64,000 bases of DNA, taken from contig CAMVNA010000002.1 in the NCBI GenBank assembly GCA_947168725.1, positions 1 to 64,000 on the forward strand. Direction: 5' to 3'. Origin of the DNA: an uncultured bacterium (GTDB taxonomy: Bacteria; Patescibacteriota; Gracilibacteria; Absconditabacterales; Absconditicoccaceae). Made by a program: the position numbers and the translations under genes. The notes under the pieces are model-generated. The model saw only the letters and a program-made list of their open reading frames with translations, searched no databases and was not told the origin of the DNA. This document shows, in pieces, positions 4,162 through 25,357 of this stretch (position 1 is the stretch's first letter; the number at the start of each line of letters is the position of its first letter).

Positions 4162-4238
4162 TAAGAAATTTGTAAAAAGATAAAATCTAATTTTACAGGT
4201 TAATTATAGGCAATTTTTATATAAAAGCAAATCTTTTT

Positions 4239-4360
4239 ACACTTTTTCGATGGAATAATTGTTACAAAACTACACTTTTTCGATGGAATAATTGTTACAA
4301 AACTACATTTTTTCGATGGAATAATTGTTATAAAACTACACTTTTTCGATGGAATAATTT
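4239..4360. repeat. 33-bp tandem repeat, right block (about 4 copies)
   Basis: The unit repeats with exact 33-bp spacing: the conserved CG lies at 4248, 4281, 4314 and 4347. The variants CACTTTTTCG and CATTTTTTCG, and one C/T change in GTTACAAA, show slight divergence. Because 33 is divisible by 3 the minus strand stays open and gives an artificial repetitive peptide (IIPSKKCSFVT); this is not taken as a gene. There are no CRISPR-type spacers. Confidence 0.9.
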
Positions 4361-4372
4361 TTTCTGACTTGC

Positions 4373-4400
4373 TTGATTTTTGAGAAAATATTGATATAAG
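4373..4400 (+). promoter_or_regulatory. Promoter of leader RNA A
   Basis: TTGATT (4373-4378), 16 bp, TATAAG (4395-4400). The conserved RNA sequence AAGAGCCAAAT begins two bases further on. The homologous locus at 24 kb has TTGAAA, 16 bp, TATCTT at the same distance. Confidence 0.5.
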
Positions 4401-4402
4401 GT

Positions 4403-4553
4403 AAGAGCCAAATCTATTTAGTCGGAATTCACAAGAATTTTGCAATTAACAAGATAAGACGATTGGTATTATCGTTTCTTTATCTTCGTTGATTGCGAAA
4501 TCCGATTTAAAGAAAATAGGTTTGGCGACTCGGTAATATCAGTCGTCTTTTTT
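4403..4553 (+). ncRNA. Three-way-junction leader RNA, copy A (riboswitch-like)
   Basis: A structured RNA shared with copy B at 23962-24105. P1 pairs GCCAAATCTATTT (4407-4419) with AAATAGGTTTGGC (4514-4526). A small P2 is AATTC-acaa-GAATT. P3 starts with GCAATTAAC (4442-4450) against GTTGATTGC (4488-4496) and continues as AAGATAA/TTATCTT and ACGAT/ATCGT. A terminator, GGCGACT (4524-4530) with AGTCGTC (4541-4547) and six T, shares its first GGC with the P1 3' strand, so P1 and terminator compete. It lies ahead of the EcoRI-type methyltransferase gene. No known riboswitch class was recognised. Confidence 0.7.
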
Positions 4554-4560
4554 AGTATGA

Positions 4561-4605
4561 AAAAATAGTTCGGCTGATTAAGCTTTTAGTCGCTAAACTA
4601 TTTTT
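4561..4605 (+). promoter_or_regulatory. Second hairpin just ahead of the methyltransferase start
   Basis: AAAAATAGTT (4561-4570) pairs perfectly with AACTATTTTT (4596-4605), with a partly paired loop. It ends three bases before the ATG at 4609, so it could act as a second terminator or could mask the start. No clear Shine-Dalgarno sequence is left between it and the start codon. Confidence 0.55.
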
Positions 4606-4608
4606 ACT

Positions 4609-5751
4609 ATGCCAAAGACAATCACAAAATTGCTTGCCGCTTGAAAAGCAAAAAAAGATGAATTTTATACTCAACTTCCAGATATAGATAAAGAATTGAG
4701 ACATTATAAAGAGCATTTTAAATGAAAAACCGTTTTTTGTAACTGTGATGACCCCTATGAAAGCAATTTTTTTAAATATTTTGCATCAAATTTTAATTTT
4801 TTGTGATTAAAAAAGTTAATTGCTACTTGATATTCTACTTCTCCAATTGCCTTTACACAGTTGCCACTATTTGAGATAAATTGATTAGAAAATGAAAAGC
4901 CGAGAGCTTATAAAATAGAAATAAATGAAGTGTATGATGCAAATGAAGATTGAGCCGTAAATTTAGCAGATATAGAACATCTTTTGAAAACATGAAAATG
5001 AAAAAATAAATTAACATTACTTAAATGAGACTGAGACTTTAGAAGTGAAGAAAGTATAAATCTCTTAAAACAATCAGATATAATTGTAACAAACCCACCA
5101 TTTTCTTTATTTAGAGAATATGTGGCTCAGTTAATGAAATATGAAAAAAAATTCTTGATATTGTGAAATATGAATGCTATTACATATAGAGAAATTTTTC
5201 CATTACTGCAAAGAAATCAAATTTGGACATGATACTGATTTAATATGTCAATGGTATATAAAACTCCATATGAAAATACATTAGAGCAAAATAGAAAATT
5301 TGTTAAATCAAAATGATATGACCCTGATAAAAATTTTATAAAAGTACCATCTGTAAACCGATACACAAATCTAGACACACAAAAAAGGCATGAAGATTTA
5401 ATTCTATATAAACATTATAATCCAGAGGAATATCCAAAATATGACAATTATAATGCTATAAATGTGGATAAAGTATCAGAAATCCCATGTGATTATGATT
5501 GATTTATATGAGTTCCTATTACATTTTTTGATAAATATAATCCAGAGCAATTTGATATAATTTGACAATGACAATGAAACTTATATAGAGAATTATCTGA
5601 TTACTGATTATCACAACAATTTGTTGATGATTATTATAAGAGTGGACAAAAATGAAGTATAAAGGCAGATCATCCAGTGTTATGATATTATGATAAAAAC
5701 CATATTCCAGTAATTCCATATATGAGAATAATTATTCGTCGTAAAAAATAA
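4609..5751 (+). CDS. EcoRI-type adenine-specific DNA methyltransferase
   Basis: A 380-residue protein matching the adenine-specific methyltransferase EcoRI family. The N-terminal FYTQLPDIDKELRHYKEHF, FCNCDDPYESNFFKYF and LKKLIATGYS segments are typical. The catalytic motif IV is NPPF at residues 162-165, used for N6-adenine methylation with S-adenosylmethionine. A LLKGDGDFRSEE segment precedes it. Many glycines are UGA. It lies behind leader RNA A and a second hairpin, and 147 bp upstream of a DUF262-HNH nuclease, a layout like a restriction-modification pair. No EcoRI-like endonuclease is adjacent. Confidence 0.9.
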
Positions 5752-5898: not shown

Positions 5899-6981
5899 AT
5901 GAAAATTGAATTACAAAGAATTACTATTGGCGAAGTTGCCAAAGATTATGTAGATAATGCTGAAGAATGAGTAGTTTGATACGGTGGAAAACTGAATATT
6001 CGTCCAAAATATCAGAGAGAATTTGTTTATGATGATAAAAAAAGAGAAGCAGTTATTAACTCTGTCCGTAAAAATTTTCCATTAAATGTAATGTATTGGA
6101 TGAAAAATGAAGATGGAACTTTTGAAATTTTGGATGGACAGCAGAGAACTATTTCCATTTGTCAGTATGTGAATTGAGATTATTCAATCAATGCACAATA
6201 TTTTCATGGACTTACAAAAGACGAACAAGACCAAATTCTGAATTATCCATTAATGATTTATTTCTGTGAATGAACAGATAAGGAGAGATTAGATTGGTTT
6301 GAAGTAATAAATTTTGCATGAGAAAAGCTTACCCCACAAGAGCTTAGAAATGCGATTTATACATGAGAATGGCTTACAGATGCTAAAAGACATTTTAGTA
6401 AAACATGATGTGCAGCTTATCAAATCTGAAATGATTATGTGAAATGAAGTGCGATTCGTCAGGAGATTTTGGAAACTGCGATTGATTGGATTTCAGACTG
6501 ATTTATCAATCAATATATGGCAGAGCATCAGCATAATCAGAATGCTAATGAATTGCGATTATATTTCCAAAATGTGATAAACCGAATCAAAGCCACTTTC
6601 CCAAATTATAGAAAAGAAATGAAATGAGTGAATTGGTGACCGTTGTATAATCAATTCAAAGATAAACAAGTTAATACAGATGAATTAGAAAAAGAGATTA
6701 AAAAGCTGATGATGGATGAAGATGTAACCAAAAAACCATGAATTTACCCTTATGTGCTTACTCGTGATGAAAAATATTTGAGTATTCGTGCATTTACTGA
6801 TAAAATGAAAAGAGAGGCTTATGAAAGACAGAATTGAATCTGTGTAAAATGTGATGAACATTTCCAGATTGAAGAAATGGAAGCAGACCATATTACTCCA
6901 CGAAGTCAGTGATGAGCTACGACTGCCGAAAATTGCCAAATGCTGTGTAGAGATTGCAATAGAAGAAAGAGCGATAAATAA
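5899..6981 (+). CDS. DUF262 and HNH endonuclease protein (GmrSD-like)
   Basis: A 360-residue protein. The N-terminal DUF262 domain has RPKYQREFVYDDKK and the signature DGQQR at residues 79-83, a nucleotide-binding/ParB-like active site. The C-terminal HNH domain has CVKC at 315-318, DHITPRSQGG from 330, and a final NCQMLCRDCNRRKSDK. DUF262 plus HNH is the architecture of type IV modification-dependent restriction enzymes such as GmrSD and of phosphorothioate- or methyl-dependent nucleases. Next to a DNA methyltransferase it could restrict DNA according to methylation state. Which state is not visible. Confidence 0.88.
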
Positions 6982-23931: not shown

Positions 23932-23959
23932 TTGAAATCTACAATATTTTTTATATCTT
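23932..23959 (+). promoter_or_regulatory. Promoter of leader RNA B
   Basis: TTGAAA (23932-23937), 16 bp, TATCTT (23954-23959). The conserved AAGAGCCAAAT of the RNA begins two bases later, as at the 4.4-kb locus. Confidence 0.5.
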
Positions 23960-23961
23960 AA

Positions 23962-24105
23962 AAGAGCCAAATTATACACATATATCATCCTTTAAGGTAA
24001 TTTTGCCATTAACGGATTGAAAAGGCGATTTATTCTGTCTCTTTCATCATCCGTTGATGGTATAGAGTGTATAGTTTGGCGACTAGCAGGATAAGTCGCC
24101 TTTTT
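23962..24105 (+). ncRNA. Three-way-junction leader RNA, copy B (riboswitch-like)
   Basis: Homologue of copy A. P1 pairs GCCAAATTATACAC (23966-23979) with GTGTATAGTTTGGC (24067-24080). P2 is CCTT-T-AAGG. P3 is GCCATTAACGGAT against ATCCGTTGATGGT, continued by TGAAAAG/CTTTCA. The terminator is GGCGACT (24078-24084), AGTCGCC (24094-24100) and five T. ATTTTGCnATTAAC and GTTGAT are shared word for word with copy A. The upper part of P1 and part of P3 differ but keep pairing, which is covariation. It ends 19 bp before the SLH-protein start. Confidence 0.7.
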
Positions 24106-24124: not shown

Positions 24125-25357
24125 ATGAAAAAATTACTCATTTTATTACCATTACTTCTTTTGTTTATTACAACTCTAACCTTTGCTAGAACCGATAGAT
24201 TTGATTATAATATATATAATAAATGTGTTCAAAATTTACAAATACAAATAAACAATGCCGAAGCACAAGCATCAGATTGACTATGATTTTCTAGAAATTG
24301 AAGTGAATATTTAAATTCTCTCCCTGATGGTGACGAAATTTATGAAATTTGTGAATCAGAAGCAGAAAACTGGGAAGATAGAAATAGTTGGAGTTTTTAT
24401 CACCAACTAGCAATAAGTGCAGCACAAAGAGATGACTATGAATCAGTAATTGAATACCTTGAAAAAGCTATATATTATGAACCCGTAGGTTCAGAAGTTT
24501 ACAACATAACATATAATGAAATACAAGAAGCTAAAGATATTATAAAGGAGGAACAGAAACAAATTCAACAAAAACAAGATGAACAGGACCAAAAGGCAAT
24601 AGATAAAGTAAATGAATATATAAAAAAATGAAATGAATATCGGAAATCAGACCAATTAGATAAAGCATTAGCAGAATTTCAAGGAGCAAAGAATTTAATG
24701 GATAGTTACACAAAAATATCCTGGCATACAGACTGAATGCCTGTAGAAGAATCAATAGAGTTAGTCAAAAAACAAATAAAAGAAAAAGAAACTCAAGAAA
24801 AAGGAAACACAACAAACACAACAACACAGACAAAACCCATTACAAAAGATGAAGAATTAAAAATTGCGATACAATGGATGTATGATAATTGACTAACAAT
24901 ATATAACCAAGTCCAAGATTTCTTACCAAATAATGAAATAACAAGAGAACAAGCATCAAAATTTTTTGTAGAATTTGCTGCAAAGGTTTTGTGAAAAGAA
25001 AGATGAAATATATATAATTATAATATTTTCTCCGATATATCAAATGCAGACCCGACATTAAAAAACCATATAATATATGCAAATAATATGTGACTATTCA
25101 AATGAACAAATTGAAAATTTAATCCATTCAACAAACTAACCAAAGCCCAAGCAATTGCCGTTACCGTAAGAATGGCTAATTGATATATGGATGAAAATTA
25201 TAATTCACGATATTTAAACTATTATTATGCAGCTGATTCTTACTGAATATTAAAATGGTGATGATATGAATTTGACACACTAGATAAACAAAATATTTCA
25301 AGGTGAGATATGGCACTAATATTATACAATTTATATCTCTATCTAAACAATAAATAA
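24125..25357 (+). CDS. Secreted protein with coiled-coil/TPR region and SLH domains
   Basis: A 410-residue exported protein. Residues 1-22 are a signal peptide (LLILLPLLLLFITTLTFA). A TPR-like and coiled-coil part follows (DDYESVIEYLEKAIYYEP; QKQIQQKQDEQDQKA). The C-terminal 150 residues carry S-layer homology repeats: ITREQASKFFVEFAAKVLG, FSDISNADPTLKNHIIYANNMGLFKG and LTKAQAIAVTVRMANG. SLH domains normally bind cell-wall polymer, so this is likely a wall-attached surface protein. It is expressed behind leader RNA B. Its stop codon abuts the convergent helicase gene. Confidence 0.85.

What the first reader, a model, noticed from the sequence alone, without database searches (positions are those of the whole stretch)
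4403..4553. Three-way-junction leader RNA family with covarying stems and a competing terminator
Seen: the loci at 4403-4553 and 23962-24105 share AAGAGCCAAAT, ATTTTGCnATTAAC, GTTGAT and TTTGGCGACT...AGTCGYCTTTTT in the same order, although the rest of the sequences differ. The closing stem P1 (13-14 bp) and stem P3 keep pairing by compensatory changes (GCCAAATCTATTT/AAATAGGTTTGGC against GCCAAATTATACAC/GTGTATAGTTTGGC). GGC at the end of P1 is also the start of the terminator stem, so only one of the two can form. Each copy has a -35/-10 pair with 16-bp spacing, ending two bases before the RNA. Known: this overlap is how transcriptional riboswitches and attenuators work. Inference: this is an undescribed class, with an EcoRI-type methyltransferase and an SLH surface protein downstream.
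Basis: partly seen in the sequence, partly recalled or inferred. Interest (0 to 1): 0.85.

Follow-up and report, generated by a model that had tools for sequence, protein, structure and literature searches.

The report
Pseudoknotted leader RNAs controlling surface genes
Tiny bacteria with a reassigned stop codon place a large family of folded RNA leaders, not in the RNA-family library searched here, in front of pilus, surface-protein and DNA-methylation genes; the leader's tail pairs back into a hairpin loop and probably acts as a switchable transcription stop.

Summary
Both window leaders (4403-4552, 23962-24105) fold into long hairpins whose apical segment is also complementary, over 19-20 contiguous bases, to the 3' tail that ends in the U-tract: a long-range pseudoknot (PK). 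It is present in all four copies found by sequence ends alone. In a PK-blind pattern search it is present in 42 of 42 hits with an uninterrupted P1 of 11 bp or more, against 7 of 75 of the rest, three of those being known copies. Over 83 aligned rows PK has 456 two-sided changes against 141 in shuffles. In 12-bp windows G.U pairs number 75 and A.C 0: RNA pairing. No Rfam match. The family occurs in 53 of 341 class genomes, behind a promoter at the hairpin foot, usually just upstream of methyltransferase, pilin-like, SLH/secreted or zinc-ribbon genes. Best reading: a transcription attenuator whose terminator stem is the PK; effector unknown.

The parts
4373..4400 (+). promoter of copy 1: -35 TTGATT (4373-4378), 16-nt spacer, -10 TATAAG (4395-4400)
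   Evidence: across 78 copies the best -10 ends 2-3 nt before the RNA in 71, against 7% in shuffles
4403..4552 (+). leader RNA copy 1
   Evidence: (model hit 4403-4552)
4407..4419 (+). P1 5' strand, copy 1
4443..4457 (+). P3 5' strand, copy 1
4456..4474 (+). pseudoknot strand A (apical segment), copy 1
4480..4495 (+). P3 3' strand, copy 1
4514..4526 (+). P1 3' strand, copy 1
4524..4530 (+). GGCGACT: 5' strand of the local terminator hairpin T, GGC shared with P1
4531..4549 (+). pseudoknot strand B (tail), copy 1; contains T 3' strand AGTCGTC 4541-4547
4548..4553 (+). U-tract, copy 1
4561..4605 (+). second hairpin before the start codon (-15.4 kcal/mol); its 3' strand 4588-4605 is also complementary to the P1 3' strand plus GACT (duplex -20.4 kcal/mol): P1*
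4609..5751 (+). EcoRI-type adenine DNA methyltransferase (table 25)
5899..6981 (+). partner type II restriction enzyme (GmrSD_N + HNH)
23932..23959 (+). promoter of copy 2: TTGAAA-16-TATCTT
23962..24105 (+). leader RNA copy 2
23966..23979 (+). P1 5' strand, copy 2
24006..24017 (+). P3 5' strand, copy 2
24019..24038 (+). pseudoknot strand A, copy 2
24049..24060 (+). P3 3' strand, copy 2
24067..24080 (+). P1 3' strand, copy 2
24078..24084 (+). GGCGACT, local terminator 5' strand, copy 2 (3' strand 24094-24100)
24086..24105 (+). pseudoknot strand B, running into the U-tract (24101-24105), copy 2
24125..25357 (+). SLH-domain protein with signal-peptide-like N terminus (table 25)

Best explanation
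It is a cis-acting transcription-attenuator leader RNA. SHOWN by sequence: a promoter-like pair is phased so that transcription would start at the foot of a long hairpin. The loop end of the hairpin carries a strand A, and the tail carries a strand B that ends 0-2 nt from a U-run. A:B is conserved by covariation as an RNA helix that crosses P1, i.e. a pseudoknot. A same-strand ORF usually starts within 150 nt. INFERRED: as RNA polymerase reaches the U-tract, B invades the apical hairpin through its loop and A:B becomes the stem of a 'split' intrinsic terminator whose 5' arm lies about 50-60 nt upstream, stopping transcription (OFF). P1 holds GGC so that the simple local hairpin does not pre-empt the decision. 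When A is held in its own hairpin or bound by an unknown effector, B stays unpaired and polymerase reads on (ON). Back-up hairpins (T, or a separate terminator T2) differ between lineages. The genes so controlled are surface, pilus and DNA-methylation genes of presumably host-dependent bacteria.
For: PK 19-20 bp in all 4 copies found without PK knowledge. In all 117 hits of a PK-blind pattern, PK of 11 bp or more in 42 of 42 with an uninterrupted P1 of 11 bp or more, and in 7 of 75 others, three of them known copies with an interrupted P1. Covariation 104 vs 32 two-sided cells (26 copies, PK and P1 together) and 456 vs 141 (83 model-fitted rows, PK); slid controls collapse. 75 G.U vs 0 A.C in 936 cells. 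PK ends 0-2 nt from a U-run of 3 or more in 78 of 78 (68 directly). Of 44 copies without a local terminator hairpin of 5 bp or more, 35 still have 5 or more U, so PK is there the only conserved helix seen at the U-tract. Promoter position 71 of 78 vs 7% in shuffles. Same-strand ORF within 150 nt in 69 of 78. Net energy of A:B after opening the apical hairpin: median -14 kcal/mol before the pseudoknot penalty.
Against: No transcript or termination data. A local hairpin T that would compete with PK exists in 34 of 78 copies and is paired in 92.9% of cells among 26 copies, as expected if PK were instead an antiterminator. In several f4 copies B is also complementary to the 5' strand of a downstream terminator, which allows a different logic. 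In the window copies a linker of only 4-5 nt joins P1 to B, so the pseudoknot may need a bend at the bulge. Twelve of 78 copies have a U-run shorter than 5. Some units stand in tandem arrays, as free sRNA genes might.
Confidence: 0.5

Rival explanations
1. Same leader and pseudoknot, opposite polarity: P1 + PK is the antiterminator. PK takes the 3' strand of the local terminator T, P1 takes its GGC, and the gene is read; loss of the pseudoknot lets T form and stops transcription, as in pseudoknot riboswitches with transcription terminators.
For: In f1 copies T (GGCGACT/AGTCGYC) shares GGC with P1 and its 3' strand with PK. T of 5 bp or more occurs in 34 of 78. T energy -9.6 and -11.1 kcal/mol in the window copies.
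Against: T shows no covariation and is absent as a perfect 5-bp hairpin in 44 of 78 copies, while PK stays and 35 of those 44 keep 5 or more U.
Confidence: 0.25
2. The units are free-standing small RNAs with their own promoter and terminator, for example 6S-like RNAs that bind RNA polymerase, and the nearby gene is not controlled in cis.
For: Own promoter, own U-tract, extended hairpin with a bulge; tandem arrays in G064, five whole units and the tail of a sixth in L436.
Against: Same-strand ORF within 150 nt in 69 of 78. Leader in front of 22 of 27 EcoRI-type methylase places with in-frame TGA (17, five weaker) and none seen at the 9 without. RF00013 finds nothing in this genome. In 21 of 78 copies the ORF starts 24 nt or less after the leader, leaving little room for another promoter.
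Confidence: 0.15
3. Post-transcriptional element: a stable 5' hairpin/pseudoknot that sets mRNA stability, RNase III cleavage or translation start, the U-tract being incidental.
For: Very stable hairpin (median -43 kcal/mol) at the 5' end; start codon often close by.
Against: U-run of 3 or more at the PK 3' end in 78 of 78 copies, including f4 copies in which the base before A is not an A-tract.
Confidence: 0.08
4. DNA-level element (attC-like folding site, or two inverted protein-binding sites A and B).
For: Ends GCCAAAY...RTTTGGC recall integron attC boxes (resemblance from memory); A and B are near reverse complements.
Against: G.U 75 against A.C 0 in the A:B windows; promoter phasing and U-tract.
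Confidence: 0.02

Closest known systems
Pseudoknot riboswitches with transcription terminators (fluoride, ZTP, preQ1-I; recalled from general knowledge)
   Same: 5' leader in which a pseudoknot and a U-tract-associated stem share nucleotides; controls the gene in cis
   Different: No conserved ligand-binding core seen: the foot of P1, GGCGAC, and the A:B complementarity are kept; A:B sequence changes between lineages; no Rfam match
Intrinsic (Rho-independent) terminators / attenuators
   Same: stem ending at a U-tract, upstream of the gene
   Different: the stem conserved by covariation is non-local: its 5' arm lies in the loop of another hairpin about 50-60 nt upstream
6S RNA (RF00013)
   Same: own promoter, extended hairpin with a large bulge
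   Different: placed in cis before genes, pseudoknot with the tail; no RF00013 match in this genome
Type III toxin-antitoxin RNAs (ToxI-like; recalled)
   Same: pseudoknotted RNA with a terminator in front of a gene; tandem units in G064
   Different: units are about 150 nt each with their own promoter; the 67 downstream proteins scanned show no toxin family in Pfam, nor do nine downstream proteins in PADLOC

Membership tests
Any Rfam 15 family | score at or above the curated gathering threshold | tested here: not met
   window: 0 matches; at relaxed threshold only sub-threshold hits to unrelated RNAs; 17 loci with relatives: only two tRNAs
Metabolite riboswitch | conserved ligand-binding core across sequence-divergent copies | tested here: not met
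   26-copy alignment: invariant columns only at the P1 ends, inside strand A, around GGCGAC and in B/U-tract; bulge and stems vary in sequence and size
Metabolite riboswitch | binding of a small molecule | not testable with these tools
   needs in-line probing or similar
Intrinsic terminator / attenuator | stem directly followed by a U-tract | tested here: met
   PK ends 0-2 nt from a U-run of 3 or more in 78 of 78; 66 of 78 have 5 or more U
Intrinsic terminator / attenuator | local hairpin before the U-tract, conserved as a pair | tested here: not met
   T: 92.9% of cells paired but no two-sided change among 26 copies; 5 bp or more in 34 of 78
Intrinsic terminator / attenuator | transcription really ends there | not testable with these tools
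   needs RNA-seq or in vitro transcription
Leader-peptide attenuator | conserved translated short ORF in the leader | tested here: not met
   ATG ORF of 6 or more codons starting in the first 90 nt in 44 of 78, none in either window copy, no common peptide among the 12 printed
6S RNA (RF00013) | match to the RF00013 model | tested here: not met
   0 matches in the own genome; control rings in 5 of 14 genomes
Type III toxin-antitoxin | downstream endoribonuclease toxin | tested here: not met
   no such family among the downstream proteins scanned
Integron attC site | DNA hairpin, no preference for G.T over A.C | tested here: not met
   75 G.U against 0 A.C in the A:B windows; attC boxes themselves not searched

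The most novel reading that the evidence does not exclude
A class of 'split' intrinsic terminators: the 5' arm of the terminator stem is displayed in the loop of a separate hairpin and the 3' arm precedes the U-tract, so termination itself is a pseudoknot-forming event that an effector can gate. In stop-codon-recoded, presumably host-dependent bacteria this one RNA architecture forms a regulon of pili, surface proteins, zinc-ribbon proteins and DNA methyltransferases.
Probability: 0.4. Interest if true: 0.9.

Novelty: new variant of a known kind. Interest (0 to 1): 0.8.

Why it matters
How Patescibacteria switch between free and attached states is stated to be unknown in a 2024 perspective (PMC11665869; passages seen). 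Here is an RNA family, up to nine model hits per genome, placed before pilin-like, surface-protein, zinc-ribbon and methylase genes, which gives a ready list of genes that may be co-regulated. If the pseudoknot is the terminator stem, it adds a mechanism to intrinsic termination that can be tested in vitro with any bacterial RNA polymerase. Because the sequence of A:B drifts while the pairing stays, it is also a clean case for covariation methods and a candidate Rfam family.

Tried and rejected
Three-way junction as a family feature: rejected, many copies have a one-sided bulge. Local hairpin T as the conserved switch partner: not supported by covariation, though mostly paired in f1. Small-ligand core: no conserved internal sequence beyond the ends and A:B. 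Leader peptide: rejected. 6S RNA: no RF00013 match. Type III toxin-antitoxin: no toxin seen downstream. DNA-level inverted sites: rejected by G.U against A.C. PK subtype as an address for gene class: a permutation test over 73 copies gave no signal (431 of 1000 permutations as high; the tail anchor fails for some copies). A post hoc Fisher test for G-rich A strands before methylase genes outside f1 gave 5 of 8 against 2 of 40, p = 0.0006, not corrected for relatedness or for choosing the motif after seeing it; I do not rely on it.

PK-blind control: in a first pass I sorted 32 hits by eye into 14 likely copies and 18 controls (the controls included three in f1/f4 genomes: G004, G048, G062). 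Because that sorting was not blind, I fetched the remaining hits and scored all 117 by uninterrupted P1 length. The cut-offs of 11 bp were set after seeing the numbers. Among the 75 hits with shorter P1, seven have PK of 11 bp or more: L268, L269 and L326 (known copies with interrupted P1), L505 and L510 (not beyond shuffles), and L529 and L453, which lack a U-tract and look like coding sequence.

Paper searches listed nothing that describes this family; only openly licensed PMC papers are held.

Dropped rows: of 57 later hits five were left out of the 78-copy counts: L399 and L402 (no such structure) and L400, L401, L403 (weak). L016 was a false pattern hit. In one search, 54 of the 57 hits show a run of 11 bp or more; the run printed for L366 is a chance one. 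P1 counts of copies with an early mismatch are lower bounds.

Full report
What was checked. Each folds far more stably than shuffles: -46.8 and -46.7 kcal/mol, z -8.4 and -8.3, 0 of 200 shuffles as good. P1 pairs over 13 and 14 bp with different sequences. Each has a promoter-like pair with a 16-nt spacer that ends two bases before the RNA.

Finding further copies without any structural assumption. A pattern made only of the two ends was run over 49 genomes of the family. It gave five places: the two window copies, a third copy in the same genome (G000:C7), one in another species of the genus (G039:C65), and one false hit in G013. None of 2000 dinucleotide shuffles per copy reaches this (longest 14). 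Non-cognate pairings reach 7-12, except between w1 and its near relative G039. Because A lies inside P1 and B outside it, A:B is a pseudoknot.

Family. A covariance model that contained only the A:B pairs (R1) found 26 copies with E of 1.2e-4 or less in 10 of 49 genomes, the four source copies included. All 26 have P1 and the long hairpin (-28 to -49 kcal/mol) and an A:B run of 14-25 bp. On the MAFFT alignment of these 26, the A:B and P1 pairs together have 104 two-sided changes against 32.3 in shuffles, 92.8% of cells paired, and 26-48% when slid. The local terminator hairpin T (GGCGACT/AGTCGYC) is paired in 92.9% of cells but has no two-sided change and a covariation score equal to shuffles. 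With model R2, 43 of 353 class genomes have hits at E of 0.01 or less, in families f1, f3, f4 and f5 plus one f26 hit that I judged false. With R3, 53 of 341 have hits at 0.001 or less, in f1, f3, f4 and f5 only. In a sample of 379 genomes of the phylum at 1e-4, only the own genome and one other hit (G537, another class); that copy shows P1, A:B and P1* on reading. Downstream ORFs of the hit genomes, read with table 25, contain in-frame TGA, but few in G051, G053 and G078; methylase matches in f1, f4 and f5 genomes carry 1-22 in-frame TGA, at 27 of 36 places. So the family seems to follow the TGA = glycine lineages; this is not settled for every genome.

PK-blind control. The pattern TGCCAAAN{80,110}TTTGGCGA carries no A:B information. 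All 117 places it listed in 341 class genomes were scored. Uninterrupted P1 is 11 bp or more in 42, and all 42 have A:B of 11 bp or more. Of the 75 with a shorter P1, seven reach 11 bp: three are known copies with an interrupted P1, two are not beyond shuffles, and two (G311, G225) lack a U-tract and look like coding sequence. Thirteen of the copies tested had not been found by the earlier PK-based class search.

RNA, not DNA. I chose 12-bp A:B windows by Watson-Crick matches alone. Over 78 copies (936 cells) they hold 852 Watson-Crick pairs, 75 G.U, 0 A.C and 9 other. A DNA inverted repeat or a pair of protein sites would give G.T and A.C alike. On 83 model-fitted rows the A:B pairs show 456 two-sided changes against 141; that alignment leans to the structure by construction and includes three antisense rows.

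Anatomy over 78 copies (26 + 57 later hits, five dropped). The A:B run is 11-25 bp, median 16, and its 3' end lies 0-2 nt from a run of 3 or more U in 78 of 78, directly in 68; 66 have 5 or more U. The best promoter-like pair ends 2-3 nt before the RNA in 71 of 78, against 7% in shuffles. A same-strand ORF was assigned to 73 and starts within 150 nt in 69, median 57 nt (ORFs were picked by length, not by a gene finder). T of 5 bp or more occurs in 34, a separate downstream terminator-like hairpin T2 in 26, both in 4, neither in 22. A strand after the U-tract (P1*) is complementary to the P1 3' strand beyond all 100 shuffles in 19 of 81 rows, w1 among them at -20.7 kcal/mol; w2 shows none. In five f4 copies (L355 twice, L357 twice, L387) B is also complementary to the downstream stretch beyond all 100 shuffles, where a T2 was found.

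Genes behind it. Pfam scans of 67 downstream proteins (two of them behind dropped hits, L400 and L403): nine EcoRI-type methyltransferases, four other DNA methyltransferases (L312, L366, L391, L393), six type IV pilin-like N_methyl proteins (L403 among them), SLH domains above the cut-off in w2, L293, L299, L310 and L352, nine with zinc-ribbon matches (two above the curated cut-off), two serine recombinases; many without a family. Among 36 PF13651 places in 341 genomes, 27 have in-frame TGA. Of these, 17 have a leader just upstream and five more a weaker match at the same kind of place (E 0.0003, 0.0004, 0.007, 0.03 and 0.13): 22 of 27. At the nine without TGA none was seen. One search covered 30 of the 36 places and did not list three of the leaders that one search found. 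Nearly identical leaders sit before different genes: w1 (methylase) and L291 (zinc ribbon) 97.3% over 150 nt; L296 and L297 98.5% over 133 nt.

Mechanism. A:B and a following U-run are found in the whole set while T is not. In 35 of 44 copies without a local T of 5 bp or more, five or more U are still there. The simplest reading is that A:B is the terminator stem. Opening the apical hairpin costs a median 11 kcal/mol and A:B gains a median 27, a net of -14 before the pseudoknot penalty. Polarity, effector and the actual end of transcription are inference. The antiterminator reading and the free-sRNA reading remain open, the latter because G064 carries tandem arrays of units each with its own promoter-like pair: five whole units and the tail of a sixth in L436, three and the tail of a fourth in L434.

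Novelty. No Rfam 15 family matches the window or 17 loci with relatives (two tRNAs only). Nine paper searches listed nothing describing it; I saw passages of PMC11665869 and one passage of PMC11452946, and only listings of the rest. The comparison classes (riboswitches, ToxI, attC) are described from general knowledge apart from the tests named. That these bacteria are host-dependent is taken from the listing and passages on Patescibacteria and Gracilibacteria, not tested here.

Noticed in passing
window 4238-4359: A 33-bp unit repeated 3.7 times (96% matches) lies upstream of the copy 1 promoter.
   Followed up: no
L436 (G064:C10), L434 (G064:C5): Tandem arrays of leader units, each with a TTGACA-like/TATACT-like promoter and a different hairpin body: five whole units and the tail of a sixth in L436, three and the tail of a fourth in L434, followed by a small ORF; the one in L436 matches no Pfam family.
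   Followed up: partly
w1 and L291; L296 and L297: Leader bodies 97-98.5% identical stand before unrelated genes, as if the leader moves as a cassette.
   Followed up: partly
window 4425-4430: A GAATTC site lies in the leader of the EcoRI-type methylase gene; the window has 34 such sites against about 22 expected from base composition.
   Followed up: no
L305 4185-4324: A second, divergent unit follows the first by about 10 nt at a contig end.
   Followed up: partly
L454 (G537): A single copy with P1, PK and P1* in a genome of another class of the phylum.
   Followed up: partly
L358, L365, L371, L382, L386 downstream of the U-tract: A recurring GGTAAT-type/ATTAC-type hairpin between leader and start codon, seen by eye.
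   Followed up: no
window 5899-6981: The gene after the methylase is a GmrSD_N/HNH protein scored as a type II restriction enzyme.
   Followed up: no
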